Assembly (NCBI GenBank): GCA_963681505.1
Contig: OY811981.1
Coordinates: 1,116,001-1,180,000 of the forward strand
Direction of reading: 5' to 3'
Length of the DNA: 64,000 bases
Origin: Eunapius fragilis
Lineage: Eukaryota > Porifera > Demospongiae > Spongillida > Spongillidae
Shown: in pieces, positions 6,909 through 57,927 of the stretch
How the letters are laid out: the number at the start of each line of letters is the position of its first letter
Position numbering within the stretch: the first letter of the stretch is position 1
Translations under genes and position numbers: made by a program
Notes under the pieces: generated by a model
What the model saw: the letters and a program-made list of their open reading frames with translations, nothing else
What the model was told of the DNA's origin: nothing
Databases searched by the model: none

Positions 6909-7069
6909 GTCAAAAATTTCCCATAGAAAATCTATGGGTGGGAACCTACTTTTGAATCGCTTCGTAAACCCATACCAAAGCAGGTATCCTCGGGGTGGCA
7001 TTAAAAAGAGATAGAGGAGTGGTTACTGCTATCTTCCATGTGTGCAGTGGTTTGCTCATATTGCATGCC

Positions 7070-10000: not shown

Positions 10001-10120
10001 TACCGAAGCAGGTATCCTCGGGGTGTCATTTAAAACAGATAGAGGAATGGTTACTGCTATCTTCCATGTGTGCAGTGGTTTGCTCATATTGCATGTCTCA
10101 TCAACACCTCGATGCTAAGA
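7070..10120. repeat. 601-bp, three-monomer higher-order region
   Basis: Related variants start at 7080, 7681 and 8883 (steps of 601 and 1202) and again at 9692. 601 equals 208+208+185. Monomers here carry private changes such as cacctaaatgctaag in place of cacctcgatgctaag, and tttttaatcgtttggg. This stretch is therefore a distinct subfamily from the 1343-bp units on both sides. Confidence 0.8.
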
Positions 10121-10121
10121 T

Positions 10122-13100
10122 AGTCAAAAAATTCCCATAGAATTGTATGGGTGGGAACCTACTTTTGAATCGCTTGGTAAACGCATACCTAAGCAGGTAT
10201 CCTCGGGGTGGCATTGAAAAGAGATAGAGGAGTGGTTACTGCTATCTTCCATGTGTGCAGTGGTTTGCTCATATTGCATGCCTCATCAACACCTCGATGC
10301 TAATATAGTCAAAAATTTCCCATGGAAATGTATGGGTGGGAACCTACTTTTGAATCGCTTGGTAAACCCATACCAATGCAGGTATCCTCGGGGTGGCATT
10401 TTAAACAGATAGAGGAATGGTTACTGCTATCTTCCATGTGTGCCGTGGTTTGCTCATATTGCATGTCTCATCAACACCTCGATGCTAAGATAGTCAAAAG
10501 ATTCCCATAGAATTTTATGGGTGGGAACCTACTTTTGAATCGCTTGGTAAACCCATACCTAAGCAGGTATCCTCGAGGTGGCATTGAAAAGAGATAGAGG
10601 AGTGGTTACTGCTATCTTCCATGTGTGCAGTGGTTTGCTCATATTGCATGCCTCATCAACACCTCGATGCTAAGATAGTCAAAAATTTCCCATGGAAATG
10701 TATGGGTGGGAACCTACTTTTGAATCGCTTGGTAAACCCATACCAATGCAGGTATCCTCGGGGTGGCATTTAAAACAGATAGAGGAATGGTTACTGCTAT
10801 CTTCCATGTGTGCAGTGGTTTGCTCATATTGCATGTCTCATCAACACCTCGATGCTAAAATAGTCAAAAATTTCCCATAGAAAATCTATGGGTGGGAACC
10901 TACTTTTGAATCGCTTGGTAAACCCATACCAAAGCAGGTATCCTCGGGGTGGCATTAAAAAGAGATAGAGGAGTGGTTACTGCTATCTTCCATGTGAGCA
11001 GTGGTTTGCTCGAATTGCATGCCTCATCAACACCTCGATGCTAATATAGTCAATATTTCCCATAGAGATGTATGGATGGTTTCCCATAAGAATGCATGGG
11101 TGGGAACCTACTTTTGAATCGCTTGGTAAACCCATACCAAAGCAGGTATCTTCGGGGTGGCATTTATAACAGATAGAGGAATGGTTACTGCTATCTTCCA
11201 TGTGTGCCGTGGTTTGCTCATATTGCATGTCTCATCAACACCTCGATGCTAAGATAGTCAAAAATTTCCCATAGAAAATCTATGGGTGGGAACCTACTTT
11301 TGAATCGCTTGGTAAACCCATACCAAAGCAGGTATCCTCGGGGTGGCATTAAAAAGAGATAGAGGAGTGGTTACTGCTATCTTCCATGTGAGCAGTGGTT
11401 TGCTCGAATTGCATGCCTCATCAACACCTCGATGCTAAGATAGTCAATACTTCCCATAGAGATGTATGGATGGTTTCCCATAGGAATGTATGGGTGGGAA
11501 CCTACTTTCGAATTGCTTGGGTAACCCATACCGAAGCAGGTATGCTCGGGGTGGCATTTAAAACAGATAGAGGAATGGTTACTGCTATCTTCCATGTGTG
11601 CAGTGGTTTGCTCATATTGCATGTCTCATCAACACCTCGATGCTAAGATAGTCAAAAAATTCCCATAGAATTGTATGGGTGGGAACCTACTTTTGAATCG
11701 CTTGGTAAACGCATACCTAAGCAGGTATCCTCGGGGTGGCATTGAAAAGAGATAGAGGAGTGGTTACTGCTATCTTCCATGTGTGCAGTGGTTTGCTCAT
11801 ATTGCATGCCTCATCAACACCTCGATGCTAATATAGTCAAAAATTTCCCATGGAAATGTATGGGTGGGAACCTACTTTTGAATCGCTTGGTAAACCCATA
11901 CCAATGCAGGTATCCTCGGGGTGGCATTTAAAACAGATAGAGGAATGGTTACTGCTATCTTCCATGTGTGCAGTGGTTTGCTCATTTTGCATGTCTCATC
12001 AACACCTCGATGCTAAAATAGTCAAAAATTTCCCATAGAAAATCTATGGGTGGGAACCTACTTTTGAATCGCTTGGTAAACCCATACCAAAGCAGGTATC
12101 CTCGGGGTGGCATTAAAAAGAGATAGAGGAGTGGTTACTGCTATCTTCCAAGTGAGCAGTGGTTTGCTCGAATTGCATGCCTCATCAACACCTCGATGCT
12201 AAGATAGTCAATATTTCCAATAGAGATGTATGGATGGTTTCCCATAAGAATGCATGGGTGGGAACCTACTTTTGAATCGCTTGGGTAACCCATACCGAAG
12301 CAGGTATGCTCAGGGTGGCATTTTAAACAGATAGAGGAATGGTTTCTGCTATCTTCCATGTGTGCAGTGGTTTGCTCCTATTGCATGTCTCATCAACACC
12401 TCGATGCTAATATAGTCAAAAATTTCCCATGGAAATGTATGGGTGGGAACCTACTTTTGAATCGCTTGGTAAACCCATACCAATGCAGGTATCCTCGGGG
12501 TGGCATTTAAAACAGATAGAGGAATGGTTACTGCTATCTTCCATGTGTGCAGTGGTTTGCTCATATTGCATGTCTCATCAACACCTCGATGCTAAAATAG
12601 TCAAAAATTTCCCATAGAAAATGTATGGGTGGGAACCTACTTTTGAATCGCTTCGTAAACCCATACCAAAGCAGGTATCCTCGGGGTGGCATTAAAAAGA
12701 GATAGAGGAGTGGTTACTGCTATCTTCCATGTGAGCAGTGGTTTGCTCGAATTGCATGCCTCATCAACACCTCGATGCTAAGATAGTCAATACTTCCCAT
12801 AGAGATGTATGGATGGTTTCCCATAGGAATGTATGGGTGGGAACCTACTTTCGAATTGCTTGGGTAACCCATACCGAAGCAGGTATGCTCGGGGTGGCAT
12901 TTAAAACAGATAGAGGAATGGTTACTGCTATCTTCCATGTGTGCAGTGGTTTGCTCATATTGCATGTCTCATCAACACCTCGATGCTAAGATAGTCAAAA
13001 AATTCCCATAGAATTGTATGGGTGGGAACCTACTTTTGAATCGCTTGGTAAACGCATACCTAAGCAGGTATCCTCGGGTTGGCATTGAAAAGAGATAGAG

Positions 13101-15105
13101 GAGTGGTTACTGCTATCTTACATGTGTGCAGTGGTTTGCTCATATTGCATGCCTCATCAACACCTCGATGCTAATATAGTCAAAAATTTCCCATGGAAAT
13201 GTATGGGTGGGAACCTACTTTTGAATCGCTTGGTAAACCCATACCAATGCAGGTATCCTCGGGGTGGCATTTAAAACAGATAGAGGAATGGTTACTGCTA
13301 TCTTCCATGTGTGCAGTGGTTTGCTCATATTGCATGTCTCATCAACACCTCGATGCTAAAATAGTCAAAAATTTCCCATAGAAAATCTATGGGTGGGAAC
13401 CTACTTTTGAATCGCTTGGTAAACCCATACCAAAGCAGGTATCCTCGGGGTGGCATTAAAAAGAGATAGAGGAGTGGTTACTGCTATCTTCCAAGTGAGC
13501 AGTGGTTTGCTCGAATTGCATGCCTCATCAACACCTCGATGCTAAGATAGTCAATATTTCCAATAGAGATGTATGGATGGTTTCCCATAAGAATGCATGG
13601 GTGGGAACCTACTTTTGAATCGCTTGGGTAACCCATACCGAAGCAGGTATGCTCAGGGTGGCATTTTAAACAGATAGAGGAATGGTTTCTGCTATCTTCC
13701 ATGTGTGCAGTGGTTTGCTCCTATTGCATGTCTCATCAACACCTCGATGCTAATATAGTCAAAAATTTCCCATGGAAATGTATGGGTGGGAACCTACTTT
13801 TGAATCGCTTGGTAAACCCATACCAATGCAGGTATCCTCGGGGTGGCATTTAAAACAGATAGAGGAATGGTTACTGCTATCTTCCATGTGTGCAGTGGTT
13901 TGCTCATATTGCATGTCTCATCAACACCTCGATGCTAAAATAGTCAAAAATTTCCCATAGAAAATGTATGGGTGGGAACCTACTTTTGAATCGCTTCGTA
14001 AACCCATACCAAAGCAGGTATCCTCGGGGTGGCATTAAAAAGAGATAGAGGAGTGGTTACTGCTATCTTCCATGTGAGCAGTGGTTTGCTCGAATTGCAT
14101 GCCTCATCAACACCTCGATGCTAAGATAGTCAATACTTCCCATAGAGATGTATGGATGGTTTCCCATAGGAATGTATGGGTGGGAACCTACTTTCGAATT
14201 GCTTGGGTAACCCATACCGAAGCAGGTATGCTCGGGGTGGCATTTAAAACAGATAGAGGAATGGTTACTGCTATCTTCCATGTGTGCAGTGGTTTGCTCA
14301 TATTGCATGTCTCATCAACACCTCGATGCTAAGATAGTCAAAAAATTCCCATAGAATTGTATGGGTGGGAACCTACTTTTGAATCGCTTGGTAAACGCAT
14401 ACCTAAGCAGGTATCCTCGGGTTGGCATTGAAAAGAGATAGAGGAGTGGTTACTGCTATCTTACATGTGTGCAGTGGTTTGCTCATATTGCATGCCTCAT
14501 CAACACCTCGATGCTAATATAGTCAAAAATTTCCCATGGAAATGTATGGGTGGGAACCTACTTTTGAATCGCTTGGTAAACCCATACCAATGCAGGTATC
14601 CTCGGGGTGGCATTTAAAACAGATAGAGGAATGGTTACTGCTATCTTCCATGTGTGCAGTGGTTTGCTCATATTGCATGTCTCATCAACACCTCGATGCT
14701 AAAATAGTCAAAAATTTCCCATAGAAAATCTATGGGTGGGAACCTACTTTTGAATCGCTTGGTAAACCCATACCAAAGCAGGTATCCTCGGGGTGGCATT
14801 AAAAAGAGATAGAGGAGTGGTTACTGCTATCTTCCAAGTGAGCAGTGGTTTGCTCGAGTTGCATGCCTCATCAACACCTCGATGCTAAGATAGTCAATAT
14901 TTCCCATAGAGATGTATGGATGGTTTCCCATAAGAATGCATGGGTGGGAACCTACTTTTGAATCGCTTGGGTAACCCATACCGAAGCAGGTATGCTCAGG
15001 GTGGCATTTTAAACAGATAGAGGAATGGTTACTGCTATCTTCCATGTGTGCAGTGGTTTGCTCCTATTGCATGTCTCATCAACACCTCGATGCTAATATA
15101 GTCAA
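10122..15105. repeat. Second long block copy of the 1343-bp region
   Basis: Positions 128, 522, 995, 1286, 1574, 1865, 2338, 3208 and 3972 reappear at +10855. Positions 4445, 4815, 5106, 5500 and 6264 reappear at +5877. The long block that includes the 1343-bp units therefore occurs twice in the window, flanking the 601-bp subfamily. Confidence 0.88.
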
Positions 15106-16490
15106 AAATTTCCCATGGAAATGTATGGGTGGGAACCTACTTTTGAATCGCTTGGTAAACCCATACCAATGCAGGTATCCTCGGGGTGGCATTTAAAACA
15201 GATAGAGGAATGGTTACTGCTATCTTCCATGTGTGCAGTGGTTTGCTCATATTGCATGTCTCATCAACACCTCGATGCTAAAATAGTCAAATATTTCCCA
15301 TAGAAAATCTATGGGTGGGAACCTACTTTTGAATCGCTTCGTAAACCCATACCAAAGCAGGTATCCTCGGGGTGGCATTAAAAAGAGATAGAGGAGTGGT
15401 TACTGCTATCTTCCATGTGAGCAGTGGTTTGCTCGAATTGCATGCCTCATCAACACCTCGATGCTAAGATAGTCAATATTTCCCATAGAGATGTATGGAT
15501 GGTTTCCCATAAGAATGCATGGGTGGGAACCTACTTTTGAATCGCTTGGGTAACCCATACCGAAGCAGGTATGCTCAGGGTGGCATTTTAAACAGATAGA
15601 GGAATGGTTACTGCTATCTTCCATGTGTGCAGTGGTTTGCTCATATTGCATGTCTCATCAACACCTCGATGCTAATATAGTCAAAAATTTCCCATGGAAA
15701 TGTATGGGTGGGAACCTACTTTTGAATCGCTTGGTAAACCCATACCAATGCAGGTATCCTCGGGGTGGCTTTTAAAACAGATAGAGGAATGGTTACTGCT
15801 ATCTTCCATGTGTGCAGTGGTTTGCTCATATTGCATGTCTCATCAACACCTCGATGCTAAAATAGTCAAAAATTTCCCATAGAAAATCTATGGGTGGGAA
15901 CCTACTTTTGAATCGCTTCGTAAACCCATACCAAAGCAGGTATCCTCGGGGTGGCATTAAAAAGAGATAGAGGAGGGGTTACTGCTATCTTCCATGTGAG
16001 CAGTGGTTTGCTCGAATTGCATGCCTCATCAACACCTCGATGCTAAGATAGTCAATATTTCCCATAGAGATGTATGGATGGTTTCCCATAAGAATGCATG
16101 GGTGGGAACCTACTTTTGAATCGCTTGGGTAACCCATACCGAAGCAGGTATGCTCAGGGTGGCATTTTAAACAGATAGAGGAATGGTTACTGCTATCTTC
16201 CATGTGTGCAGTGGTTTGCTCATATTGCATGTCTCATCAACACCTCGATGCTAATATAGTCAAAAATTTCCCATGGAAATGTATGGGTGGGAACCTACTT
16301 TTGAATCGCTTGGTAAACCCATACCAATGCAGGTATCCTCGGGGTGGCATTTAAAACAGATAGAGGAATGGTTACTGCTATCTTCCATGTGTGCAGTGGT
16401 TTGCTCATATTGCATGTCTCATCAACACCTCGATGCTAATATAGTCAAAAATTTCCCATAGAAAATCTATGGGTGGGAACCTACTTTTGA
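15105..16490. repeat. 579-bp, three-monomer higher-order repeat
   Basis: Equivalent monomers begin at 15115, 15694 and 16273, and at 15406 and 15985, a 579-bp step equal to 185+186+208. It is a third higher-order arrangement built from the same monomer pool. Confidence 0.85.
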
Positions 16491-17819
16491 ATCGCTTCGT
16501 AAACCCATACCAAAGCAGGTATCCTCGGGGTGGCATTAAAAAGAGATAGAGGAGTGGTTACTGCTATCTTCCATGTGAGCAGTGGTTTGCTCGAATTGCA
16601 TGCCTCATCAACACCTCGATGCTAAGATAGTCAATATTTCCCATAGTGATGTATGGATGGTTTCCCATAGGAATGTATGGGTGGGAACCTACTTTCGAAT
16701 TGCTTGGGTAACCCATACCGAAGCAGGTATGCTCGGGGTGGCATTTAATTAGATAGAGGAATGGTTACTGCTATCTTCCATGTGTGCAGTGGTTTGCTCA
16801 TATTGCATGTCTCATCAACACCTCGATGCTAAGATAGTCAAAAAATTCCCATAGAATTGTATGGGTGGGAACCTACTTTTGAATCGCTTGGTAAACCCAT
16901 ACCTAAGCAGGTATCCTCGGGGTGGCATTGAAAAGAGATAGAGGAGTGGTTACTGCTATCTTCCATGTGTGCAGTGGTTTGCTCATATTGCATGCCTCAT
17001 CAACACCTCGATGCTAAGATAGTCAAAAATTTCCCATGGAAATGTATGGGTGGGAACCTACTTTTGAATCGCTTGGTAAACCCATACCAATGCAGGTATC
17101 CTCGGGGTGGCATTTAATACAGATAGAGTAGTGGTTACTGCTATCTTCCATGTGAGCAGTGGTTTGCTCGAATTGCATGCCTCATCAACACCTCGATGCT
17201 AAGATAGTCAATACTTCCCATAGAGATGTATGGATGGTTTCCCATAGGAATGTATGGGTGGGAACCTACTTTCGAATTGCTTGGGTAACCCATACCGAAG
17301 CAGGTATGCTCGGGTTGGCATTTAAAACAGATAGAGGAATGGTTACTGCTATCTTCCATGTGTGCAGTGGTTTGCTCATATTGCATGTCTCATCAACACC
17401 TCGATGCTAAGATAGTCAAAAAATTCCCATAGAATTTTATGGGTGGGAACCTACTTTTGAATCGCTTGGTAAACCCATACCTAAGCAGGTATCCTCGGGG
17501 TGGCATTGAAAAGAGATAGAGGAGTGGTTACTGCTATCTTCCATGTGTGCAGTGGTTTGCTCATATTGCATGCCTCATCAACACCTCGATGCTAAGATAG
17601 TCAATATTTCCCATAGAGATGTATGGATGGTTTCCCATAAGAATGCATGGGTGGGAACCTACTTTTGAATCGCTTGGGTAACCCATACCGAAGCAGGTAT
17701 GCTCAGGGTGGTATTTTAAACAGATAGAGGAATGGTTACTGCTATCTTCCATGTGTGCAGTGGTTTGCTCATATTGCATGTCTCATCAACACCTCGATGC
17801 TAATATAGTCAAAAATTTC

Positions 17820-18440
17820 CCATGGAAATGTATGGGTGGGAACCTACTTTTGAATCGCTTGGTAAACCCATACCAATGCAGGTATCCTCGGGGTGGCATT
17901 TAAAACAGATAGAGGAATGGTTACTGCTATCTTCCATGTGTGCAGTGGTTTGCTCATATTGCATGTCTCATCAACACCTCGATGCTCAAATAGTCAAAAA
18001 TTTCCCATAGAAAATCTATAGGTGGGAACCTACTTTTGAATCGCTTGGTAAACCCATACCAAAGCAGGTATCCTTGGGATGGCATTTAAAACAGATAGAG
18101 GAATGGTTACTGCTATCTTCCATGTGTGCAGTGGTTTGCTCATATTGCATGTCTCATCAACACCTCGATGCTCAGATAGTCAAAAATTTCCCATGGAAAT
18201 GTATGGGTGGGAACCTACTTTTGAATCGCTTGGTAAACCCATACCAATGCAGGTATCCTCGGGTTGGCATTTAAAACAGATAGAGGAATGGTTACTGCTA
18301 TCTTCCATGTGTGCAGTGGTTTGCTCATATTGCATGTCTCATCAACACCTCGATGCTCAGATAGTCAAAAATTTCCCATTGAAATGTATGGGTGGGAACC
18401 TACTTTTGAATTGCTTGTTAAACCCATACTCAAGCACGTA
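17820..18440. repeat. Simple 185-bp monomeric satellite end
   Basis: The last well-conserved monomers (near 17822, 18007, 18192 and 18377) repeat at 185 bp. They share the private variant cgatgctcaaatagtc or cgatgctcagatagtc in place of gatgctaa. They are simple tandem copies without higher-order alternation and lead into the decayed edge. Confidence 0.8.
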
Positions 18441-21330
18441 TGCATGAGGTGGAATCAAATTGAGAAAGAGGGATGGTCACTGCTATCTTCCAAGTGTGCA
18501 TTTGTTTTCTAGTATTATAAGCCTCATCAACACCTCAATGATAAGATAGTCAAACTTTACCATAGAGATGTCCATAGAAATGTATGGGTGGGAACCTACT
18601 TTTGAGTTGCTTGTTAAACACACACTGAAGCTTACATGCCTGAGGTGACATCAATTATATAAAGAGGGATGGTCCCTGCTATCTTCCATGTATGCATTGA
18701 ATTAGAAGCCTCATCAACACCTAGATGTTAAGACAGCCAAACTTCAGCATAGAGATGTTCATAGAAATGAATGGGTGGGAACCTACTTTTGAGTTACTTG
18801 TTAAACACACACTGAAGCTTATATGCCTAAACAGATAGAGAGGGATGGTCCCTGCCATCTTCCAAGTGTGCATTGGTTTTCTTGTTTTAGAAGCCTCGTC
18901 AACACTATGACATTAACATAGTCAAACTTTACCATAGAGATGTCCATAGAAATGTATAGGTGGGAACCTACTTTTGAATTGTATGTTAAACACACACTGA
19001 AGCTTATATGCCTAAGGTGACATCAAGCAGATAAAGAGGGATGGTCCCTGCTATCTTCCATGTATGCATTGGTTTACTTGAATTAGAAGCCTCATCAACA
19101 CCTAGATGTTAAGATAGTTAAACTTTACCATAGAGAATGTATGGGTGGGAACCTAGCTACTTTTGAATTGCTTGTTAATACCACACAGAAGCTTGTATGC
19201 CTAAGGTGACATCAATTATAGAAATAGGGATGGTCCCTGCTATCTTCCAAGTATGCAGTGGTTTACTTCAATTAGCAGCCTCATCTACACCTTGATGTTA
19301 AGATAGTTAAACTTTACCATAGAGATGTCCATAGAATTGAATGGGAGGGAACTTACTTTTGATTTGCTTGTTAAACCCATGCTGAAGCACGTATGTATGA
19401 TGTGGCATCTTATAGAGGAAGAGGGATTGTCACTGCTATATTCCATGTGTGCAATGGTTTTCTAGTATTTGAAGCCTCATCAACACTTTGATGTTTATAT
19501 AGTCAAACTTTCCCATCGAGATGTATCTGTGGGAACCTACTTTTCAATTGCTTGTTGAACCCATACTGAAGCTTGAATCCTGAGGTGGCATCAATTATAG
19601 AAAGTGGGATGGTCACTGCTATCTTCCATGTGTGCAATGGTTTTCTAGTATTAGAAGCCTCATCAATTCCCTGATGTTTGTTCAAATATAGAAAAAGGGA
19701 TGGTCATTGCTATCTTTCAAGTGTTCAGTAGTTAGAAGCCTCATCAACACCTTGGCTTTAAGATAGTCGAATTGTACCATAGAGATGTCCATAGAATTGA
19801 ATGGGTGGGATCCTACTTTTGAATTCCTTGTTAGAACCACACTAAAGCATATATACCTGAGGTGACATCAATTAGAGAAAGAGGGATGGTCCCTTCTATC
19901 TCCCATGATGCATTGGTTTACTTGAATTAGAAGCCTCATCAACACCTTGAAGTTAAGATAGTTAAACTTTACCATAGAGATGTCCATAAAAATGTATGGG
20001 TGGGAACTTACTTTTGATTTGCTTGTTAAACCCATGCTGAAGCACGTATGTATGATGTGGCATCTTATAGAGGAAGAGGGATTGTCACTGCTATATTCCA
20101 TGTGTACTGGTTTTCTAGTATTTGAAGCCTCATCAACACTTTGATGTTTATATAGTCAAACTTTCCCATAGAGATGTATCTGTGGGAACCTACTTTTCAA
20201 TCGCTTGTTGAACCCATACTGAAGCTTGAATCCTGAGGGGGCATCAATTATAGAAAGAGGGATGGTCACTGCTATCTTCCATGTGTGCAATGGTTTTCTA
20301 GTATTAGAAGCCTCATCAATTCCTTGATGTTTGTTAAGGTAGTCAAACTTTCCCATTGAGATGTATGGGTGGGAACATACTTTTCAACGGCTTGTTATAA
20401 CCTTACTGATGCTTGCATGCCTGGTGGCATCAATTAGAGAAAGAGGGATGGTCACCGCTATCTTCCGTGTGTGCAGTGGTTTTCTTGAATACGAAGCCTC
20501 ATCAACACCTTGACGTTAAGATAGTCCTACTTTTGAATCGCTCGTTAAACCCATACTGAAGCTTGTATGCCTAAGGTGGCATCAATTATAGAAAGAGGGA
20601 TTGTCATTGCTATTGTGTATGTGTGCAATAGTTTGCTTGAATTAGAAGCCTCATTAACATCTTGACGATAGGAAAGTCATACTTTACCATAGAGATGTAT
20701 GGGTTCTTTCCCATAGAGATGTATGGTTGGGATCCTACATTTGAATTGCTTGTTAAAACCATCCTGAAGCTTGTATGCCTGAGGTGGCGGTTTTCTTGAA
20801 TTAGAAGCCTCAACAACACCTTGACCATTGGATTGTCATACTTTCCCGTAAAGATGTATGGGTGGGAACCTACTTTTGAATTGCTTGTTAAAGCCATTCT
20901 GAAGCTTGTATGCCTGATTAGGCATCAATTATAGAAACAGGGATGGTCACTGCTATCTTCCATGTGTGCAGTGGTTTTCTTGAATTATAAGCTTCATCAA
21001 CACCTTTACGTTAAAATAGTCAAACAGTCCCATACAGATGTATGGATGAGAACTCGCTTGTTAAACCCATACTGAAGCTTGTATGCCTGAGGGTGCATCA
21101 ATTGTAGAAAGAGGGATTGTCACTGCTATTATTCATGTGTGCAGTGGTTTTCTTTAATTAGAAGCCTCATCAACATCCTGACGTTAGGAAAGTCAAGCTT
21201 TCCCATAGAGATGTATCAGTAGTTTCCAAGAGAGATGTATGGGTGGGAACCTACATTTGAATCGCTTGTTAATCCCATACTGAAGCATGTATGCATACGC
21301 ATCACTGCTATCTTTCATCCATACTATTAC
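18440..21330. repeat. Diverged satellite monomers at array edge
   Basis: The same monomer skeleton persists (gggtgggaacctacttttga, cctcatcaacacc, ctgctatcttccatgtgtgca). Substitutions and indels are now dense, and new shared motifs appear, such as gaagcttgtatgcctgaggtg and agaaagagggatggtc. Repeat-like sequence stops near 21330. I see no gene in this stretch. Confidence 0.9.
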
Positions 21331-21580: not shown

Positions 21581-24500
21581 TCATAAATCACTCAGAAGCG
21601 TGTGAGAATATAAGAAATCTTCCTCTTGTTCTAGCTCTTCACTGTCCTGCAAAATATGAAGAAATATTTTAAAGCCAAATATCCATTACCAAAAAATATA
21701 TACCTCTTGAGTGTGCTGTGCTACTTGGCGTGCACATTTGCTATCGTTAAGCTGATCTATGTATTGCTTGATCGATTTGTACTGGTAACATTGCAGTCTA
21801 TCTTGACCGATAATTGGTTGTTGTTCAATAGATGAGACTGAGGTTGACAGTAGTGCTGAAGAACTATACTCTAATGAAGAACCATTTGCATGATGCTGCA
21901 ATCCTTTCCTGGATCCGCTAATTAAGCATGTTTATACAATTTACGTACCATCCTTCGAATGATGCACAGGTGGTAGTTCTCTTCTCTCCCGAACGAAAGC
22001 AATTCTCTCCTAGACCAGAAATAAAAGCTTAAGCGGTAAGGTTTGTTTCTCGTTTCTCACCTTGGATAGTTCTTGTTCACGTCTTTGTAGCTCGTGTGTT
22101 TGCAGATGCAGAATGTGTGCCTGTTTAACCAGTTCATTGTCATATTTCTGAGCATCCTTCAAACACTTCTCTCCATATTCTTTTGCAGCCTGTGCAATCT
22201 GCATAACATGATACACAACATGATGCCAATACAGACACTGCGAAATACCTTTCTTGTTTCTTCCATCTCCTTTAACTTTAGGCGCAATATTTCTGAAATG
22301 TTAATTAACTGCTCCTTTTCATTTTTTACTGCTTCCAGCTCAACCCTAAGCTTTTCTTGCTGTTGGTTAAGCTGAGCACTTTCATCATAGATACGTGAGT
22401 TTTCATCCTTTAAATGAGCCATTTTAGATAAGAGATCAGCCTTCGCCTCAATAAATGCTAGAAATGAGCACTCTATTACAACATTGTGCTACCATCCATA
22501 CCATCAAATATCGTTCCGCCTCTATTTTCTCTTTCTCTGCAGCCATCCTTTGAATGTTTCCAAATTCAGTTCTTTCTGCTGCCAATCGTCGTTTTTCTTC
22601 ATAGCTCTGTGAAAGAATGCATTGCTGCTCCGCTAAAAATGTTTCCTGAACAAGATGGAGCAGAATATTGAAATGACGCTAGATTTTTTAAAGTGCTAAA
22701 CATAAATGCCCTATAGAATATACATCCCAAATTACTCTGCCCTAAAGATGAATTTAGAGAGTATAAATAGTTCAATAATCAATCTTTTTATGGATGTTTC
22801 TATTTTTCAACCTAGCCATACCTGGTGAACTTTAATTAACAAAAGTTACAATGACAAGCGTTCACATTTCATACATGAGAGAACTAAATTACTGTTTAAT
22901 GCAAATCCATTGTAATAGTGAAGCCGCTTTTTTTTCCTACATTAATAAACAAAGCTCAATGCATTGGTGCCTAGATACTTTTGCTTTCTGCAACTTCTCC
23001 TTTTCTTCGGCAAAGCATTTAAAGGTTCTGGATCTCTCCTCCTCGAAAGCTACCTCTTGGGCTCTAAGTTTCACTGCTGCTTGCTGGATCTGCCAATGCT
23101 CCTAAAATTTCAGAATAAATTACACAACAGGAACATTTCATTTGAAATGACTACAGACATGTTCAATTTGTTGGCTCTGTTGATAAACATGGGCTTCTAA
23201 CTTTGCAATAAGCCCTTGGAGTTTTTCTCTCTCTTGGTCATTGCTGAATTGTTGCTTAACAAGCCTCCCCTCCATCTCTAAAGTATAAAGCTTACTTCAC
23301 CTATAAATTTTAAATTTTCACTTATATGCTGACCATTCAGGTGTTCTTGCTGAAACCTTATCACTTGCTCCCGCTGATCTAGTCCTTTGGAATGTGCTTG
23401 ATCTATTATTGTGTGAATTTGAGCGACTTCCTTTACAGATGCTTCCACTTGCTGTGTAAGTTCACTTAGCGTTCTGGGGTAGTAATGATAATAATGGGGT
23501 AGTAATCAGTATGAGATAAACAAACACAGTGTGATATAAACAAACACTGACGTTACCTGGAATGAGAATATGAGCACTTCAGAGCCTCAATTTCCTGACG
23601 ATGTAGGCTTGAACAATGCTGCAAATTCAGTTCATGCTCTTTTTTTAAATTCTCCACAAGGACCCTACATGGCCATACATTACCAGAATGAAACACAAGC
23701 CATCCTTTAGGATGCATGCAACTTTTTCAACCATAGAAACTAGGTTTTATGGGTGACACTCCTCCCTCATACCCACTCATGGATTGAATTGAGTTTAGTT
23801 TTATTTGTGATATGAGTATGTAACAGCATTATGACAATATTTTATCACCTGGATAGTTCAACATGTAAACAATTAGAGTCCAACTTACTCACACATTTCC
23901 TTCACACTGCTAACTTCATTGGATTTCATTATTTCAAGGGACTCAATCTCTTTCTTTAAAAACACTTCATGCCTTGTATTTTCTTTTGTCAAAGCCACTA
24001 ATTTCTCATTCAAAGTTTTTCGCTCCAGTTCAACATCATCTTGCAGTCTGTAGGATTAGATATCTTTCCTCAAAGTACAGTTAATACAAATCATACTAGC
24101 CTGGCCAATCTTAACTGGAAGGATTCCTCCACATCATGTAGTCTGACACTGATAATCAGAAATAAAGATTAGACTAGTGCACCATGAAAACCACTATTAC
24201 CCATGTTCTTTTTTTATTGATTCCATTTCCTCATGGTGTCTTCTTGTGAAGTTATCTAAAGATATTTGAAGTTTATCTCGTTCCATTGTAACTATATGAA
24301 GCTATAAATTTCAGTCAAAAATATGCTTTTGTCATGCAGGTTCTCTCACCTTGGTACTTAAATCATCCAACTTATCAAGCATGGATCTGCGATCATCTTC
24401 CAGTGCACATAACTTTAGCTTTAATTCTTCCGTAGTTCGTAGTTTATTTTCTTCGGATGCTTTGAGACGATCCTCTAACTCTACGACCCTTGTCTATATG

Positions 24501-27500
24501 GAGGTTATAAGATAATAGCCAAATCGTATAGCCCGGCTAGCTCAGTCGGTAGAGCATGAGACTCTTAATCTCAGGGTCGTGGGTTCGAGCCCCACGTTGG
24601 GCGTTTTTTTTTTTCTCCCTCCCTTAGTATTATCATTAGCGGTTTTTTTTTTCCCCTCCCTTAGTATACAATACCTTATACAACTCTCTTTCTTCATTAG
24701 CAGTTTTCAGTTCTTCCAATCCCTCGTGCTTCTTTTCATATGGCGCTATATTGCTGCTTTGTTTCCATGATTCTAGAGAATTTCCTTGTGGTTCCACAAC
24801 TTCATCACCTGAATGTGCGGTGATGGAGCTAGCAAGTTCATGTTTTGTAATTGGTTTTTCATCTGCTGCAAGNNNNNNNNNNNNNNNNNNNNNNNNNNNN
24901 NNNNNNNNNNNNNNNNNNNNNNNNNNNNNNNNNNNNNNNNNNNNNNNNNNNNNNNNNNNNNNNNNNNNNNNNNNNNNNNNNNNNNNNNNNNNNNNNNNNN
25001 NNNNNNNNNNNNNNNNNNNNNNNNNNNNNNNNNNNNNNNNNNNNNNNNNNNNNNNNNNNNNNNNNNNNNNNNGATGCTATGACTTGTTGAATATTTCTGC
25101 TCCTTAGTAACGGAGCAATATGTAGTGTCTTGCCATGGAAAGAAAGGATGTTTCAAAGGATTATGCAATTTAGACATTGGGTCCAGTTCCTTCTGAGATC
25201 TTTCATCTGCTTTGACAGATTTTACCGCTTGTCCAGGACTTGCTTGTACAATACTTTGGGAGTGAGAAGAAGCTACCATTTAATGCAATATATTTATTAT
25301 TTCTGTTGGACATGCACTTATTCAACACTGATTAAATACAAAATTCAGCTCTATGATAGAGGAACTAGCATTTGCCCTGACCAGGTCGACCATAGATCTC
25401 ATTGAGTAAGACGGACTTTGGCCAGCATATGAAGGTGGCAAGTTACAGAGGAAATAATGGTAGTGCGTGGCTTCTTTTACTCAATCTTCATAAGTTTCAA
25501 TGACCATAGGGACACATATCCATCCTAGATCTGAGCACTTTGGGCTTTCATGTATTCGCTTGTACTGTTATTAAACAACGAAAGAAACTTGAAACGTTCA
25601 TACCACGGTACAAGAAATACTATATTACTGGTACATTAGCAGCATTATATAATTCAATGTACTTAATTAAATAGTCCTATTGGTCAGAAAGCTCTGGCTA
25701 GAATGGTCCTTGCAATGGCCCTCATCAGGGTTAGATTTACACATCCATAGAGATCAGCAATAACTTTTGACTTAAGTGATTTGATGGTATCTAAATCAGA
25801 AACAGAATTTGGCTGTTGAATTTTAGGTGTGGACTATCAACTGCACAAAGGCCTGAGCTAGATGGTGATGCCATGAAAGCTGCACACGAATGAGCAGTGA
25901 GGGAGGAGACCTAATCCACTATAGCTAAGGCTAAGATTTTCCTAAGAACATCTTGTGTTTCTGTGGCTTCCTCACATTATCATCATGACAAACCATGTGA
26001 GTCCAAATTTGGAGTAGTTTGTGCCAGGTATATCAATCTGCAGTAGCTGCCACAAATGCACAACAGAGTTATAGCCACCTGCAGCTGAGAGTCACGAACT
26101 GCAAACTCCACTAATTGGGACAACAACTTCTTGGCTTCATCTCGCTTGCCAGCAATGAAATTTGCACAATCAAGTAGCCACCAATGAGAGCTCCCAGAAG
26201 TCCATATTGGGGAGATGACAACCAGAAAAACTGGAGGTATCATTTTGGCGAAAATGTTCATATTTTGGTAGGTTGATGAAATACTAAGGGTGGATTCCAA
26301 CTTATCAATGAGGGAAAGAGTACACTGTACATTTGACCTCCTGCCAGCTATTACCCCATAATTCAGTAACCGCGCCTGGAAGAGACGGTTTAGGCACTCA
26401 TCAGAATCCACAGTGGAAGCTATCTTGTGGAAAGGAGCAGAGGTCCCAATAGGTCACCGTGTTGCACTCCTGGCTGTGAAGATAGGATCCACAGAAGAGT
26501 AAAACCCGCAGCACCACACTAGCTGTGCTGGGAAATAAATAGCACATTCATCAAGGAAGGCCTGCCTTGATATAAGGTTAAATGCGCTTCGCATGTCAGT
26601 TTTTGCTACAACAAAGTCATCTTCCGTCCAGTGTTCTTCCATGCACTTTCTCAGGCCATGGATGATCCTCCCTGCTACAAGCCACACCCAGCTGAATAGG
26701 CTCAAAATACTCTGATGCCCTGTCTTTTAGCACAACACAGAGACATTTCCCTGTAAAGTTACCTCTTTGATTCACCAACAGCAATTGATCTTATATTTGG
26801 AGAGCATCTTTGTTATTTATTTATTTTGTATTTAATTAGAATAGAAGAGAATACAGTATGCATAATAACAAAAATTACAATGAAGGCCTAATGTTCAACT
26901 CTACAGTATACCACTACACTACCTCTAAAACTTAACCAGCACACCTGAGAACGAATGCAGCATTGCTAGTGCATTGCCTCTTATTTTAAAATGATATCAA
27001 TCAGGATTACAGATACAGCAATACAAGTATAACAACGTTAGACCACTTGAAGAACATGCAATAACTTCCACCCTCAGACCACCTAAAGCCCGAACATGAA
27101 AGCAAAGCTCTGGCATTAGCTTTGATAGTGTTAGACTAAAACAGTATAATTTATTTATTTATTAAAATAACATTAATGCATTTTAATTAAATATTAGTTA
27201 CAACAATATTCAACGAGCCCCTGCAGCGTGAGCCAGCAGCACCTGTGCATTCTGTCGCATCAAGACAACTGACACGTGGCAATATAGTTCACTCGTTGAA
27301 TATTTACAATTAAAATGCATTAATTTGAAATAAAAAAAACACTGATTAAATATTATTAAATAAAATATATATAATAAAATGAAATAAAATTCATGCATGA
27401 TGTTTCTCCTCCAAAATAATAAATAACATTAATAAAAACAATTCTTGCCTCTGTACACTATGTGATTTATTATTACTATTATTATTATCAAGCAATTATT

Positions 27501-29344
27501 ACATACATACAAATGGGTACAATCTGATTAAATTAATTGATAAATCTCTTATACATTAAAATCACAGGCTATTTATTATCAATGTTCATATGCATAATAA
27601 TAATTTGTATGCTGTAAATTATTAATGCAAATTATAGCAACCTAGCAAACATTAAATGACTAACTATTATTTTTTGTTATTATTCCACAAAACATGTTCT
27701 AACCCAACACACAGGCAGAACATATGCATCTTGCCTTTTCTCCAGTCCAGCATTGTCTGACACCATACTTTTTTCCATATTCCTATCCCCTACCAGTCCA
27801 ATTGATTTCATAATGCTGAGATTCTGTAATTTATCACTAATAGTTGCCAATGGTCTGGGTGCCCTATCATCAGTCTTAACAGTCTCAGTAAACTTCACTG
27901 ATTTCTTCCCTGATGGTACTGTATTTTGTAGTGATCTTGATTTGTAAGGATCAAGTTTTGAAATGGCAGAAGGGAGATAATCTCCAAACTGGTATTCCTG
28001 TTCCTTATTTGGATCCAGTGGAATTACCGTTTTATCTGCATCCACACTGGGCCCCATGATTTCATGGTTTTTACTTCTTCTGGTTGTCTGAAAAGAAGTA
28101 TTAACACCCAATAGTTCATCAAACCTTGAGCCTTTCTTTAATTCCTCTTCACTTATAATTTCCATAGGCAATGCATTTGTGTCCAAAGTGGTAACCTCAT
28201 CACTAAGCTCCATGTCACATTCATCTTTCTTGTCTGCACCCTGGACAAGTGTGACATATTCTGACGACATTGCTTCATCCTTAGTGCTGGATATATCACT
28301 CAGTTTGTTCAATCCTGAACTAGTACTTAGCTGCTCAGAAACTTGTAACCCACTGCCAAATGCTTCAAGTGAGATACTGCTTTGTCCAGTTCTCTTTGAA
28401 TTTAACGTAAACTTGGGTTTACCCTTCCTTGAAGGCATTATTTCTTCCTCATCTTGGCCTCCCAAAAGATCCAACAGGTCATCATTATTCAGAGCTACAT
28501 GTAGATACAAATGGCATTTGTGTAACTCATAAATTGTAAAACATCTTCACACATCATGGCTACTAATTTTTTATGCATACGGTATTAAATGGAATACATC
28601 AATATGAAGTTACCCCATATAAAGATAAACCATTATTGTTACAAGATGATTGTATCTATCGATCTATCCGCTACCTATCTGTGTATGATACACTAGCGGC
28701 CAAAACTTACCAGGTTTCACACTACTTGCTGGTTTGGAGGTGAAGTGTTTGCTTTCATTTTGTGTAAATTCAGCACTATTCTCCTCAGTTCCAATATTTC
28801 CTTGAATCACAGAAGTAGCAGGTTTAGTAAAAACTGTTTTTTTTTGCTTTAAGGACAAAGAACTAAACAAGTTTCCCTCAAGGTCATCAATATTCACTGA
28901 AGCATCCAGCTTCATAGACTCCTTAAATACATGAAAATGGCAGAACAAACGTTATGGACCATAGACGCACGTATACGATCATGCTCAACCATAAATGAAG
29001 TCTCTTACGTGAAGGTTCGTGTAAAAGGCCCGTTGATCAGCATATTCTTCTTTACTACTTATGTAAAGGTATTGCATCTTGTTTAAATTAGTTCGTTTTT
29101 GTTTTTTACAAACCTCAACTTTTGATTCCTGGTACTGGTAGACCTTTTATGTTCATTTTCATCGTATAAAAACGCTCCGATGGCGTCGTTCAAGTCTGCG
29201 CGGTTACTCCCCGAGGGCAAATCTTTTGCTATATCTATTTCTGCCTAAATGACAAGCAGATAAATCATCATAGGTAATACCACTATAACCAGAGATCATC
29301 TATATATGATCTCTGCTATAACTTACTCCACTTCCGCTCGCCAT
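21581..29344 (-). CDS. FBF1: Fas-binding factor 1 (transition-fibre protein), spliced
   Basis: FBF1 sits on ciliary transition fibres and helps gate protein entry into the cilium. Clear exons include 29327-29344 (start MASGSG), 29110-29244, 28711-28921, a long exon from 28494 down to about 27740, an exon 24675 to about 25270 broken by an N gap, 24350-24493, and further exons to 21581-21646. The N-terminal half is disordered with FBF1-like short motifs (DDLLDLLGG, FDELLG, YQFGDYLPS). The C-terminal half is coiled coil. The piece EEKRRLAAERTEF and the tail LQDSEELEQEEDFL match the known FBF1 pattern (family knowledge). Codon phases join across the first four exons. Exon limits between 25.3 and 27.8 kb are not resolved. 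One intron holds a retroelement fossil and another an antisense tRNA. Confidence 0.85.
24531..24603 (+). tRNA. tRNA-Lys (anticodon CTT)
   Basis: A complete 73-nt cloverleaf. The acceptor stem GCCCGGC pairs with GTTGGGC, including two G-T pairs. The A box is tagctcagtcggtaga. The anticodon stem TGAGA/TCTCA closes the loop CTCTTAA with anticodon CTT, and the B box is gggttcgagcccc. There is no intron and no encoded CCA. It lies on the opposite strand inside an intron of FBF1, between coding exons 24350-24493 and 24675 onward. Confidence 0.97.
24604..24614 (+). terminator. RNA polymerase III terminator
   Basis: An uninterrupted run of 11 T begins directly after the discriminator base of the tRNA-Lys, the standard Pol III stop signal. 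Confidence 0.9.
24873..25072. other. Assembly gap (200 N) inside an FBF1 exon
   Basis: Exactly 200 N, probably a placeholder length. The FBF1 reading frame is open on both sides (from about 25270 down to 25073, and from 24872 down to 24675), so coding sequence is missing here. Confidence 0.99.
25290..27735. other. Large FBF1 intron, AT-rich, with retroelement debris
   Basis: This 2.4-kb stretch separates the N-terminal and coiled-coil exons of FBF1. It holds a decayed reverse transcriptase fragment (25983-26705). From about 26800 to 27660 it is very AT-rich, with short ATTT and TTA runs. Small FBF1 exons could be hidden here, but I could not identify any. Confidence 0.6.
25983..26705 (-). 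pseudogene. Decayed retrotransposon reverse transcriptase
   Basis: Read on the minus strand, two open pieces joined through a frameshift follow the reverse transcriptase order. First comes a motif-A-like segment AKTDMRSAFNLISRQAF (about 26600). Then GVQHGDLLGPLLL (about 26450) corresponds to the usual GVQQGDPLGPLLF. Then LLNYGVIAG (about 26340) stands where a YLDDG-type catalytic box should be, so both catalytic aspartates are lost. The downstream piece AKKLLSQLVEFA fits the same element type. No intact ends are seen. It is probably a non-LTR-like element and certainly inactive. Confidence 0.75.
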
Positions 29345-29407
29345 ATTGTATTGTTGGGTAAAATCGTTGCTCGGCAACAGTTAGTTAACTATTAATTTCA
29401 TTCTAAG
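29345..29407. promoter_or_regulatory. Bidirectional promoter of FBF1 and unknown gene
   Basis: Only 63 bp separate the FBF1 start codon (minus strand, 29344) from the start codon of the plus-strand gene (29408). Core promoter and both 5' leaders must lie here or overlap the genes. No TATA box is evident. An X-box is present at its centre. Confidence 0.75.
29366..29378. promoter_or_regulatory. RFX X-box motif
   Basis: The sequence gttgctcggcaac is an inverted repeat (GTTGC, TCG, GCAAC). It fits the RFX consensus RYYRYY-N(1-3)-RRNRAC at every defined position. It lies 22 bp from the FBF1 start codon. RFX factors switch on cilia genes in animals, so an X-box before a transition-fibre gene is expected biology. 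Confidence 0.8.
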
Positions 29408-30528
29408 ATGGACGGCTTGGAGTATTTTAAGCCAGACAAAATCCTGCCACTGAATGATAATGGCAATGAAGGATCACAGAAAAACGAAATGAAATATGAA
29501 GCTAATGTCCTCGTTGAAGATAGCAGTCCTGTCTTGAGTACTGAAGAACAGTTTCAAGATACCCACGCATGTACCCACGAAAGCATAGCAATTCCAGGAA
29601 ATCAAGACAAGCCATTAGCTACAGACGAGAGTGACCGCCAACTCAAAGGGCGAAATGAGCCGCAGTGTGTGACGACTTTCTCGAGAGATAGCTCGACTTC
29701 ATCATCCAACTCCAGTTCTGATTACAGATCACCCGCAGCATCTTTGTACGAACGAGAGTTTTTAGCTCCTGCTATACATTATAGCCGGGATAGTATTAAT
29801 CAGAAGTTAATCGCCATTATAGGAAGAGAATTTGACCAGCCTGGACAAATCGCTTCAGACATGCAGGGGCTTCTTCAGAAGTATTCTGATAATTGCACAG
29901 CAAAGTTCGTTCCTTTCACTGTACGGAGAAAAGTTCTTCTTAAAGGAACTTTTGATACCAGAGACCTCAAACAGCATGATCTTATCTGTTTTTGTTATAA
30001 TGCCTCTGAGGCAAGAATTTTGCTAACAGGTCCAGACGGCTTTTATAGCACTCTATTGAGACTTGTCGAAGCACTACTTGGTAAGTATTCATGTGGGGCT
30101 GGGCATCTTTTGGGGGGGGGGCCTATTTGAGCTGGGGTCAAGGCAACAGGTCAACAAGCTTCCAGCCTAAACTACATTCAAATGTAGTGCACCTATATAA
30201 CTATATAACTAGCACACTTGCAAATAGGTCACGTACATATATGTAAGGGATGTTTTCAACTGTCGTTCTTAATTACTTAGGTCCAAACAAAGTGGCATTT
30301 GTTGTGGCAAACTACAGCCCACCAGGGTGTGTGGTTGTGAACAATGCAAATGAGTTGATCTCGCCTGTACTGCAAACAAGGTTATATAATCAAGATTCGC
30401 TAAAATTCTACTTAGACAAGGAGCAAGTTTTGTCATGGAAAACTGGACCAAGTGTTTGGCATTTGGATGCACTTCTCCGCCTTGCTAACTTGGACTGCAA
30501 TCCTGTGCAGTCTTGCTCTCTGCTATAG
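29408..30528 (+). CDS. Unknown protein, 306 aa, ending in a CaaX box
   Basis: Two exons, 29408-30080 and 30281-30528, joined in phase 1 across a 200-bp GT-AG intron (gtaagt...cttag). The first 120 or so residues are charged and Ser-rich and look disordered. Residues from about 130 to 300 look globular (for example GQIASDMQGLLQKYS, VAFVVANYSPPGCVVVNN). The last four residues are CSLL, a CaaX-type prenylation motif whose final Leu favours geranylgeranylation, so membrane anchoring is inferred. I do not recognise the family. It shares its promoter, with an X-box, with FBF1, so a cilia-related role is a hypothesis. Confidence 0.8.
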
Positions 30529-34946: not shown

Positions 34947-43149
<8,203 letters not shown>

Positions 43150-43274
43150 CTTCAAAGCAATATGCACGTGACTGCATGTGACGAAACAAGCGATTAAAAT
43201 TGCTATGTACTGCAGTGTGCATGTGAGATCATGTTAAAATTGAGTATTAACACGTAGTATTACACGTACTACGG
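43150..43274. promoter_or_regulatory. Bidirectional promoter of ACO2 and PLC
   Basis: The divergent start codons are 125 bp apart. The segment contains a canonical E-box CACGTG at 43165-43170 (context gcacgtgac) and a short near-palindrome acacgtagtattacacgta. No TATA box is clear. A second copy lies at about 57801-57927 and is 2 bp longer (extra AT near 57856). Confidence 0.65.
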
Positions 43275-46200
43275 ATGGAGGCGCCGTCACGTAAGCATCA
43301 GTGTGTCATTTAGGGTTGGTACGATCTGGCTTTGCAGTTACTTAATGTTTATGATAGAGATCGTAATAGTGCCTTTTTTGGTGTCGTAGGTTTATGTTGT
43401 GTGCAAGAGTTGAAGTGCGAAAACTACTTCAAATCAGCTGCACTGCATGGTTGTTGTATAATGACTCGTATCATCTTTAATAGATCTCAGCCCACGCCAG
43501 GGGTTATTTGATGAAATTCGTCGATTGCGTGGTGATACGCTTACTAAAGACTCGTCTGAACATCCCATTAAGACTGGTGACCTCAAGAAAACTACGCAGT
43601 CTCGAAAGAATAATTCCACAGTTGGACCGGCAAGAGAGAGACGTTTCCAGCTGACAGAAGTTGCAGTCGAGTATCTGGAGCGCTTTAGTCAGGTGCTGTT
43701 GGTGTGTGCGCGTGTGGGCGTCGTATTTGTGCTGCGTGCGTGTGCGTGTATGTGTGCGTTGTATTCGTGCTGCGTGTGTGTGTGTGTGTGTGTGTGTGCG
43801 TGTGCGTGCGTGTGCGTGCGTGTGATTATATTAGTTTGCTTATTACCTACAGGTCAAGGTTCGTCGTTCATTCCCACTAACTAGCATTGAATCTGTGGAA
43901 GAGGATAAGGAGAATCCTCGCATATTTAAGCTAGTGTTCTCAGCCACGGTAATGCTTCTGGAGGCCCCAAGCTCAGAGGAAGCTACAGACTGGGTCCAGA
44001 AGATCAGAGAAGGTGGGTTGTATTAATTATGTATTATGGGTGTGGTCCTCTTGTGTCCTTAATTTGGGACGAAGGAGGAATGCAATGATACCTTATGCAT
44101 TGCATTGTTGTTCCTAGTGTGGGCCAAATGGCATGTCATACCAACGCCCACTGACTCTCTTCTGGGCACCTCAACTGAAGAAGGGCTTCCGGAGGGGAAT
44201 ACTGCGGCAAAGTGCTCTTGTGAGATTGCATCAGATAGTGCAGGTGAAGGACCAATGGATGACGGCCCCGGCCATAGTGCAGGTGAAGGACCAATGGATG
44301 ACAGCCCCGGCCATAGTGCAGGTGAAGGACCAATGGATGACAGCCCCGGCCATGTGGTGGCACATGACCATAATCCTAAGCAATACAAGTACCCATGGCG
44401 ACGAGGGCTGATTAAGCGGAGAGTGGTAAGTGTAAGGGGTGTGTAGGTGAGGAGGTGAGGTGATGGGTATACACAATTAACCTTATAGCATCACCAACAA
44501 CCGCCTCGCCTTGTGAGGATGATGAGCAACAGCCATTTTGGTAAAAATGTCATGTCGCTACTACCATTCACACATCACATGATCATCACTGTAGAAAGCA
44601 AAGCATTTGAAAAGCTTCATGAGGAATATGCTATGATCAAATACCCTCACAAAAAATGGTCCATACCAAGCGAAAAACTTGTCCACATCGACAAGGATAA
44701 CCTGGTTAGCTGATATTACCCATTGGTTTGAACCATTTGAGGGTTATGTTCCTTTTAGCAAATTCTGTGGCGAAGATCTGGACTGTCTGCTTTTCACATG
44801 AGCAATATTTGTGAGTGGTCAATAGTATGTTACCCCTGGCAACTATCACTACGGCAACATTACATGCACACACAGTACCTCTTCATCATGTGTTGGAGAT
44901 ACGTGAAGGACAGTTGACAAAATGGTTTCATCACTTTCCATATGAGGAGGTTGATGGTCAGTCACTCTCCCTCGTCTATGAAGAAGAGAGAAGTTAGTGC
45001 AAAGAAGATCGCTGATTCCTTTACATGAAGTGTACCACCCTAGATGGTTATGTTAGCCTAACCTCTCTGGACCTGATATGTGATAATCCAGCACACTACA
45101 AGGATTGGATTGAAGGGGTGAGTTAGCTCATGATTGGCTCCAGATGGAGTACCATCTCCTCCCCCATAGCTTGGGGCCTTGATCTCTGGTTCCCGCAAGT
45201 CAATGTGGAGCTCCATTTACCCCACTACAGATCCCTTCATACTGTATGTTCATCCCACACCTACTTATACCTAGTTCAGCACCTGTGTTTCCTGAACTGC
45301 TGTAGCTGGCTCAAGAGTCTGTGGTCCACCAAGCACTCTGACCATGAACTACCAGAGAAAGCAGCCTTGTCATTGTTACTGAAGATCCATCCATCCTGTG
45401 ATGTTCGCCTTGCCAAGGAAATTATAATGGTGGGTAATGTATCTCCTCCCCCTCCCCATTGGCCACACCCTCTTCCTCATTGGCCTCCTCCCCATTGATT
45501 CCTCTCCCTAGGGGTATGAGCACACACACACACACACACTCTCTCTCTCTCTCTCTTTCTCTCTCACTGGTATATGATGTATCAACAAGCCAAACAAAGG
45601 CAAAATAAAAAGTCACATTCATAGAAGGGTCACATGATTGATGGAAGGGTCACATTATTAAAGTTAACTATCTAAATATTTCTTCATTTAGACAGCGCAC
45701 AACCATCAGTGCAGCTCAACCACCAACTATGGCAATGCCATTCTATGGGATGGCTTAACTCTGCTCTTCAATTTGATGTGTGATAATGGAAATGTAAGGA
45801 CTGGGGAACTGAAGAGTCAGTGTACAGATGTGTTTTTGCTTTGTATAGCTATTGAAACTGTTCAGGTCATATACCAAGGAGTACCCTACCCTTGGCATGA
45901 CCAAGGAAGAGTTTGGAGACTTCCTCATTGAAGAATGTATGGTACGTGTATTGATATGGTGGCTGTTAACAATCCACAAAGCATTGCTAACAAGCTGTGT
46001 GTTGCTATGCAGTGGAGACGTGGAGACTGTACCAAGAGTGCTGTGCTGAAGGTGATGAAACACCATGACTATCACCACAAGTCCTTCAAGAAATACGTAG
46101 CTAAGAACAATCCATTGGCTTTCACCATTGCCACTACAAAACCTCTGCTTACATATGCAGGATTTTTGAGGTAAGTGTTCCTCCCCCTCCTTCCCTCCCT

Positions 46201-50506: not shown

Positions 50507-50706
50507 NNNNNNNNNNNNNNNNNNNNNNNNNNNNNNNNNNNNNNNNNNNNNNNNNNNNNNNNNNNNNNNNNNNNNNNNNNNNNNNNNNNNNNNNNNNNNN
50601 NNNNNNNNNNNNNNNNNNNNNNNNNNNNNNNNNNNNNNNNNNNNNNNNNNNNNNNNNNNNNNNNNNNNNNNNNNNNNNNNNNNNNNNNNNNNNNNNNNNN
50701 NNNNNN
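50507..50706. other. Assembly gap (200 N)
   Basis: A second run of exactly 200 N. The sequence resuming at 50707 is the same as that at 36054. Confidence 0.99.
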
Positions 50707-53523: not shown

Positions 53524-53558
<35 letters not shown>

Positions 53559-54123: not shown

Positions 54124-54180
<57 letters not shown>

Positions 54181-55496: not shown

Positions 55497-55533
<37 letters not shown>

Positions 55534-57800: not shown

Positions 57801-57927
57801 CTTCAAAGCAATATGCACGTGACTGCATGTGACGAAACAAGCGATTAAAATTGCTATATGTACTGCAGTGTGCATGTGAGATCATGTTAAAATTGAGTAT
57901 TAACACGTAGTATTACACGTACTACGG
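57801..57927. promoter_or_regulatory. Second copy of the ACO2/PLC bidirectional promoter
   Basis: Same as the segment at 43150-43274 but 2 bp longer through an AT insertion. The CACGTG E-box is kept at about 57816-57821. Confidence 0.6.

What the first reader, a model, noticed from the sequence alone, without database searches (positions are those of the whole stretch)
29366..29378. Perfect RFX X-box in the FBF1 promoter
gttgctcggcaac satisfies the RFX consensus and is palindromic. It sits 22 bp before the start codon of a ciliary transition-fibre gene, in a 63-bp bidirectional promoter. This ties cilia gene control by RFX to this genome, and the site can drive both directions.
Basis: partly seen in the sequence, partly recalled or inferred. 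Interest (0 to 1): 0.75.

Follow-up and report, generated by a model that had tools for sequence, protein, structure and literature searches.

The report
Cilia gene switch in a sponge
A short mirror-like DNA word just in front of a sponge cilia gene matches the docking site of RFX, the animal cilia regulator, and the same word recurs in front of other cilia genes of this genome, so it is probably a real but expected switch.

Summary
GTTGCTCGGCAAC is at 29366-29378, in a 63-bp gap between two divergent start codons: FBF1 (minus, ATG 29344, 21 bp away) and a sponge-wide CaaX protein (plus, ATG 29408, 29 bp away). It fits the published X-box consensus exactly and is palindromic except at its core. 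The exact 13-mer occurs 9 times in this 219-Mb, apparently demosponge, genome; 4 lie 14-25 bp before start codons of cilia genes (FBF1 itself, B9D1, a SAXO3-like gene, a probable CFAP99). Of 6 cilia genes chosen by protein family, 4 carry an X-box-type site within 45 bp of ATG, against 3.8% of background windows and 0 of 6 proteasome genes. The genome encodes about three RFX genes. Most likely this is a working RFX X-box for FBF1. RFX control of cilia genes is long known, so this is a new member of a known kind; mildly unusual are the tight position next to the start codon and the shared head-to-head gaps. RFX binding, transcription starts and two-way drive were not tested.

The parts
29366..29378 (.). 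X-box, two inverted RFX half-sites with 1-bp spacer (GTTGCTCGGCAAC; GTTGCCGAGCAAC on the FBF1 strand)
   Evidence: the same word recurs before other cilia genes
29345..29407 (.). 63-bp divergent intergenic stretch holding the X-box (candidate bidirectional promoter)
   Evidence: transcription starts not known
29327..29344 (-). FBF1 first coding exon, MASGSG, followed by a gtaagt donor
   Evidence: read from sequence; splice sites inferred
29110..29244 (-). FBF1 second coding exon (AEIDIAKDL...); its end is inferred from phase
   Evidence: no expression data
28711..28921 (-). FBF1 third coding exon (ESMKLDASVNIDDL...)
   Evidence: splice sites inferred
27683..28494 (-). FBF1 fourth exon region (LNNDDLLDLLGG...), 3' end not fixed
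   Evidence: homologue P0121, 50% identity
23281..23505 (-). FBF1 coiled-coil exon region
   Evidence: PF21007 E=0.0046
22451..22678 (-). FBF1 coiled-coil exon region
   Evidence: PF21007 E=2e-10, 40.3 bits (curated whole-protein cut-off 45)
29408..30127 (+). ORF holding the first exon of the divergent partner, a family with sponge members and no Pfam match
   Evidence: 119 homologues at E<=0.001; M1 and D2 invariant in 12 aligned
30247..30525 (+). ORF holding the second exon of the partner, ending CSLL (CaaX-type tail)
   Evidence: homologues P0067 and P0118 end CSVM and CTII

Best explanation
The 13-mer is an RFX X-box in the proximal promoter of FBF1. A dimer of a sponge RFX protein would hold the two inverted half-sites (1-bp spacer) and switch FBF1 on together with other cilia genes that carry the same element next to their start codons. 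Shown: exact consensus, position, RFX genes in the genome, recurrence of the element at some other cilia genes. Inferred: binding, activation, coordination with cilia formation, and that one site may serve both divergent genes.
For: Exact match to GTNRCC-N0-3-RGYAAC. RFX DNA-binding domain at 4 places above cut-off, about three genes. 4 of the 9 exact genome copies lie 14-25 bp upstream of ATGs of FBF1, B9D1, a SAXO3-like gene (PDB 8snb SAXO3, E=7e-12) and a CFAP99-like gene (PDB 9ijj, only hit, E=0.28, N-terminus to N-terminus). With a generous 1000 cilia genes and 100 bp each, 0.004 of 9 would be expected (P about 1e-11); leaving out FBF1, which gave the word, it is 3 of 8 with 0.0037 expected (P about 8e-9, worked by hand). 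Cilia genes found by family: 4 of 6 have a RYYNYY-N1-3-RRNRAC site within 45 bp of ATG against 99 of 2621 background windows (binomial P 3e-5) and 0 of 6 proteasome genes (Fisher P 0.03 for 4 of 6 against 0 of 6). Scored over 300 bp, the best site lies within 30 bp of ATG in 5 of 6, against 1 of 6 controls. B9D1 counts in both tests, so they are not fully independent.
Against: No binding, expression or transcription-start data. The samples are small. DRC2 has only a half-site, DRC1 a weak site, and IFT54 has its site 106 bp away. The CFAP99 assignment is weak (E=0.28). In 19 fetched regions holding other variants of the 13-mer no cilia promoter was recognised, though their genes were only partly annotated. 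DNA of other sponges could not be fetched, so conservation of the site is untested.
Confidence: 0.85

Rival explanations
1. A chance match to a short, loose consensus.
For: Loose X-box patterns are common: 99 of 2621 background 45-bp windows hold one. In the window, shuffles give a mean of 0.68 matches at up to 2 mismatches.
Against: The match is exact (0.002-0.003 expected in the gap), and the identical 13-mer is found before three further cilia or probable cilia genes among only 9 copies in the genome.
Confidence: 0.05
2. A general core-promoter palindrome for head-to-head genes in CpG-rich gaps, bound by something other than RFX and not specific to cilia genes.
For: All 4 exact cilia copies lie between divergent ATGs (56 to 131 bp apart), and CpG observed/expected around them is 0.76-1.28 against 0.33 for the window; but the other five exact copies have 0.26-1.13, so CpG alone does not set them apart.
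Against: 0 of 6 proteasome genes carry it, while IFT81 and B9D2 (and IFT54, further away), found by protein family and not by the motif, do. The sequence is the RFX consensus.
Confidence: 0.05
3. The site belongs mainly to the plus-strand CaaX gene, FBF1 being a bystander.
For: The site lies in a shared 63-bp gap. The two genes may also be neighbours in another sponge: homologues P0002 and P0121 both report a longest contig of 6868 bases.
Against: FBF1 is the cilia gene and is nearer (21 against 29 bp). In the other three exact copies the cilia gene is also the nearer one, unless the KIF18A-like gene starts at its first ATG (18 bp against 25 for SAXO3).
Confidence: 0.04
4. An RNA hairpin in the 5' leader (GUUGC...GCAAC) that acts on translation.
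For: The perfect copies fold as a 5-bp stem (-3.2 kcal/mol) right before the ATG.
Against: The IFT54 and B9D2 elements fit the RFX pattern but form no hairpin.
Confidence: 0.01

Closest known systems
X-box bound by RFX factors in animal ciliary genes
   Same: Same inverted half-sites, same N0-3 spacer range, same class of target genes (passages of PMC2873420, for C. elegans; of PMC4498915, for mouse RFX2).
   Different: Of the nine cilia genes seen here, eight have their best site 0-28 bp from the start codon and one at 106 bp (four of the nine hold the exact word). PMC2873420 states 100-250 bp upstream of the coding sequence for C. elegans; mouse RFX2 sites cluster near transcription starts.
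RFX motifs in choanoflagellate ciliary promoters (PMC10530576)
   Same: RFX half-site enriched at ciliary promoters (21.9% against 2.0% of all promoters; passage seen).
   Different: That enrichment is for a single half-site; FBF1 here carries a full two-half-site X-box.

Membership tests
X-box (RFX binding site) | Matches GTNRCC-N0-3-RGYAAC | tested here: met
X-box (RFX binding site) | RFX factor encoded in the same genome | tested here: met
   PF02257, 4 exon matches over the cut-off
X-box (RFX binding site) | Lies in the promoter of a ciliary gene | tested here: met
   21 bp from the FBF1 ATG; promoter inferred from position, transcription start not known
X-box (RFX binding site) | Recurs at other ciliary genes of the species more than at other genes | tested here: met
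   4 of 6 cilia genes against 0 of 6 proteasome genes and 99 of 2621 windows; 4 of 9 exact copies, FBF1 included. Small sample.
X-box (RFX binding site) | Bound by RFX and needed for expression | not testable with these tools
   needs ChIP/DAP-seq and reporters
X-box (RFX binding site) | Conserved before FBF1 in related sponges | not testable with these tools
   no DNA of related sponges was reached; scans of genome contigs and viral contigs with the partner gene gave no relative
FBF1 | FBF1 coiled-coil region (PF21007) | tested here: met
   two exon regions on the minus strand, E=2e-10 and 0.0046, scanned one by one, so each is below the whole-protein cut-off (40.3 and 16 against 45 bits)
FBF1 | Located at transition fibres | not testable with these tools
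   known for homologues (titles and abstracts in the listing)

The most novel reading that the evidence does not exclude
In this sponge the X-box is a start-codon-proximal core-promoter element of cilia genes: a CpG-bearing palindrome with 1-bp spacer fixed about 12-25 bp before ATG, often in gaps of about 60-130 bp between head-to-head genes, which positions transcription starts and makes the neighbouring gene part of the cilia programme.
Probability: 0.3. Interest if true: 0.55.

Novelty: new member of a known kind. Interest (0 to 1): 0.4.

Why it matters
Sponges branch near the base of animals (established knowledge). Position-fixed full X-boxes at transition-zone, transition-fibre, IFT and axoneme genes of a sponge would support the view that the RFX cilia programme was in place in early animals, and they give a concrete list of sites to test. 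In the held library no paper joins FBF1, X-box and RFX, and one paper joins X-box, RFX, sponge and cilia, which is about choanoflagellates; searches for sponge with RFX and choanocyte (4 papers) and for Amphimedon with promoter, motif and RFX (3 papers) showed by title and abstract none on sponge X-boxes. Most subscription journals are not in that library.

Tried and rejected
Raw genome counts of GTTGCYNRGCAAC (250 against 48 control sites) were not used as proof: several sampled sites lie in repeats or near transposase-type frames. The 14-bp version gave 489 sites; the same few variants recur often among the places listed, so repeats are suspected; it was not followed up. The tool's own reversed control was not used, because it contains two CpGs and the window is CpG-poor. 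BBS5 (PF07289) gave no match, but nothing rang in the control genomes either, so this says nothing.

Rows dropped: a third B9-domain gene (L033) and the DM10 genes (12 exon matches) were located, but their start codons were not in reach, so they are not in the six. Of 17 proteasome matches, seven loci with matches near the N-terminus were looked at and six were used; L051 was dropped as a near-copy of L050. In one search four of these seven loci (six with L047 and L048 counted as having only 3-mismatch sites out) show 2-mismatch sites within 430 bases, none shows 0 or 1. The start codon chosen for L047, L050 and L055 is uncertain.

The other exact copies: L004 and L044 lie in long open frames (310 and 557 aa; the L004 frame had no Pfam match, as L012), L046 lies in a 67-aa frame that by eye reads like part of an acyl-CoA dehydrogenase-type protein, L043 lies near a frame that looks transposon-like by eye, and L039 stays undecided. 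The names B9D1 versus B9D2, DRC1 versus DRC2 and the first hunch of CFAP99 are recalled; the calls show the B9-C2 and NYD-SP28 family matches and the PDB matches only. The weight matrix was written from memory as an approximation. The B9D1 peptide found nothing in the PDB. Papers in which I looked only for words and found nothing useful: PMC8353261 (no RFX or X-box), PMC10256747, PMC10393296, PMC13331133.

Full report
What is there. The 13-mer GTTGCTCGGCAAC is at 29366-29378 and has no other match in the window at up to 2 mismatches. It lies in a 63-bp gap between two divergent start codons. On the minus strand an ATG at 29344 opens a short first exon (MASGSG, then gtaagt) that leads into a gene whose later exons match FBF1 (PF21007, E=2e-10 and 0.0046). 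On the plus strand ATG 29408 opens a gene with 119 homologues at E<=0.001; two of the few named ones are sponge proteins (Geodia, Amphimedon) and one is from a bacterial MAG, probably sponge DNA in it. The genome is therefore taken as a demosponge. The window is part of an unnamed 218.9-Mb genome in 24 contigs.

Fit to the consensus. On the FBF1 strand the word is GTTGCCGAGCAAC, an exact GTNRCC-N1-RGYAAC (consensus seen in passages of PMC10530576). The outer five bases on each side are inverted repeats; the core T/G pair is not, so 'palindromic' is nearly right. About 0.002-0.003 such sites are expected in 63 bp.

The exact 13-mer has 9 copies. Four lie just before a start codon of a cilia gene: FBF1 (21 bp), B9D1 (15 bp), a SAXO3-like gene (25 bp; PDB SAXO3 E=7e-12) and a probable CFAP99 (14 bp; the only PDB hit, E=0.28, aligned N-terminus to N-terminus) (gaps). 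FBF1 gave the word, so the independent count is 3 of 8. Of the other five, two lie in long open frames, one in a short frame that reads as coding by eye, one near a transposon-like frame and one is undecided. Even with 1000 cilia genes and 100 bp each one expects 0.004 hits among 9. The broader pattern was sampled too: 20 regions (21 of the 250 sites, one of them the exact word) were fetched. The 19 regions with other variants showed no recognised cilia promoter, but Pfam was run on only 7 ORFs from 4 of the 20 regions, the rest being judged by eye. The contrast 4 of 9 against 0 of 19 (P=0.006) is therefore rough. One possible reason is that the exact word carries a CpG, which in CpG-poor DNA (0.33 in the window) survives mainly in promoters; the four cilia copies have 0.76-1.28 around them, the other five 0.26-1.13. 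This is inference.

B9D1 and B9D2, IFT81, DRC1 and DRC2 and IFT54 had readable start codons; a third B9 gene and the DM10 genes did not. The best site in 300 bp upstream was at 15, 0, 12, 16, 28 and 106 bp from ATG for B9D1, B9D2, IFT81, DRC1, DRC2 and IFT54. The share of 777 background windows scoring as high was 0.3%, 5.3%, 1.0%, 16.7%, 52.5% and 1.8%. So B9D1, IFT81 and IFT54 are clear, B9D2 is moderate, DRC1 weak, and DRC2 only a half-site. Six proteasome loci gave 27-90% (the start codon is uncertain in three of them). With a fixed loose consensus within 45 bp of ATG, 4 of 6 cilia genes (B9D1, B9D2, IFT81, DRC1) and 0 of 6 proteasome genes have a site, against 99 of 2621 background windows and 12 of 236 windows upstream of ORF ATGs.

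RFX. The DNA-binding domain PF02257 gives four matches above cut-off, two of them adjacent parts of one gene, so about three genes.

Known or new. RFX control of cilia genes through X-boxes is established in animals and, through single half-sites, in choanoflagellates (passages of PMC2873420, PMC4498915, PMC3493443 and PMC10530576). This is a new member of that kind. The position close to ATG differs from the 100-250 bp stated for C. elegans, but mouse RFX2 sites also cluster at transcription starts, so the closeness may only reflect very short 5' leaders.

Noticed in passing
29408-30127 and 30247-30525 (+): Protein family with sponge members, no Pfam match, a CaaX-type tail (CSLL; homologues CSVM, CTII) and a predicted Ras-like fold without an evident P-loop: a possible prenylated pseudo-GTPase.
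   Followed up: partly
36054-49347 and 50707-64000: A 13.3-kb stretch repeated at 99.96% identity, the second copy starting right after a 200-N gap (50507-50706); probably a false haplotype duplication in the assembly.
   Followed up: partly
1-19700: Long satellite-like tandem array at the left end of the window (self-comparison).
   Followed up: no
24531-24603 (+): tRNA-Lys (CTT) gene apparently inside an FBF1 intron, antisense to FBF1.
   Followed up: no
25986-26726 (-): Open frames that look like a reverse-transcriptase (LINE) remnant inside a large FBF1 intron; judged by eye only.
   Followed up: no
L040 1501-1513: A KIF18A-like kinesin (E=5e-45) and a SAXO3-like gene share a head-to-head gap with the same exact X-box.
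   Followed up: partly
G000:C15:5758054 and 5872741: Two near-identical proteasome loci in opposite orientation about 115 kb apart, perhaps an inverted duplication or an assembly artefact.
   Followed up: no
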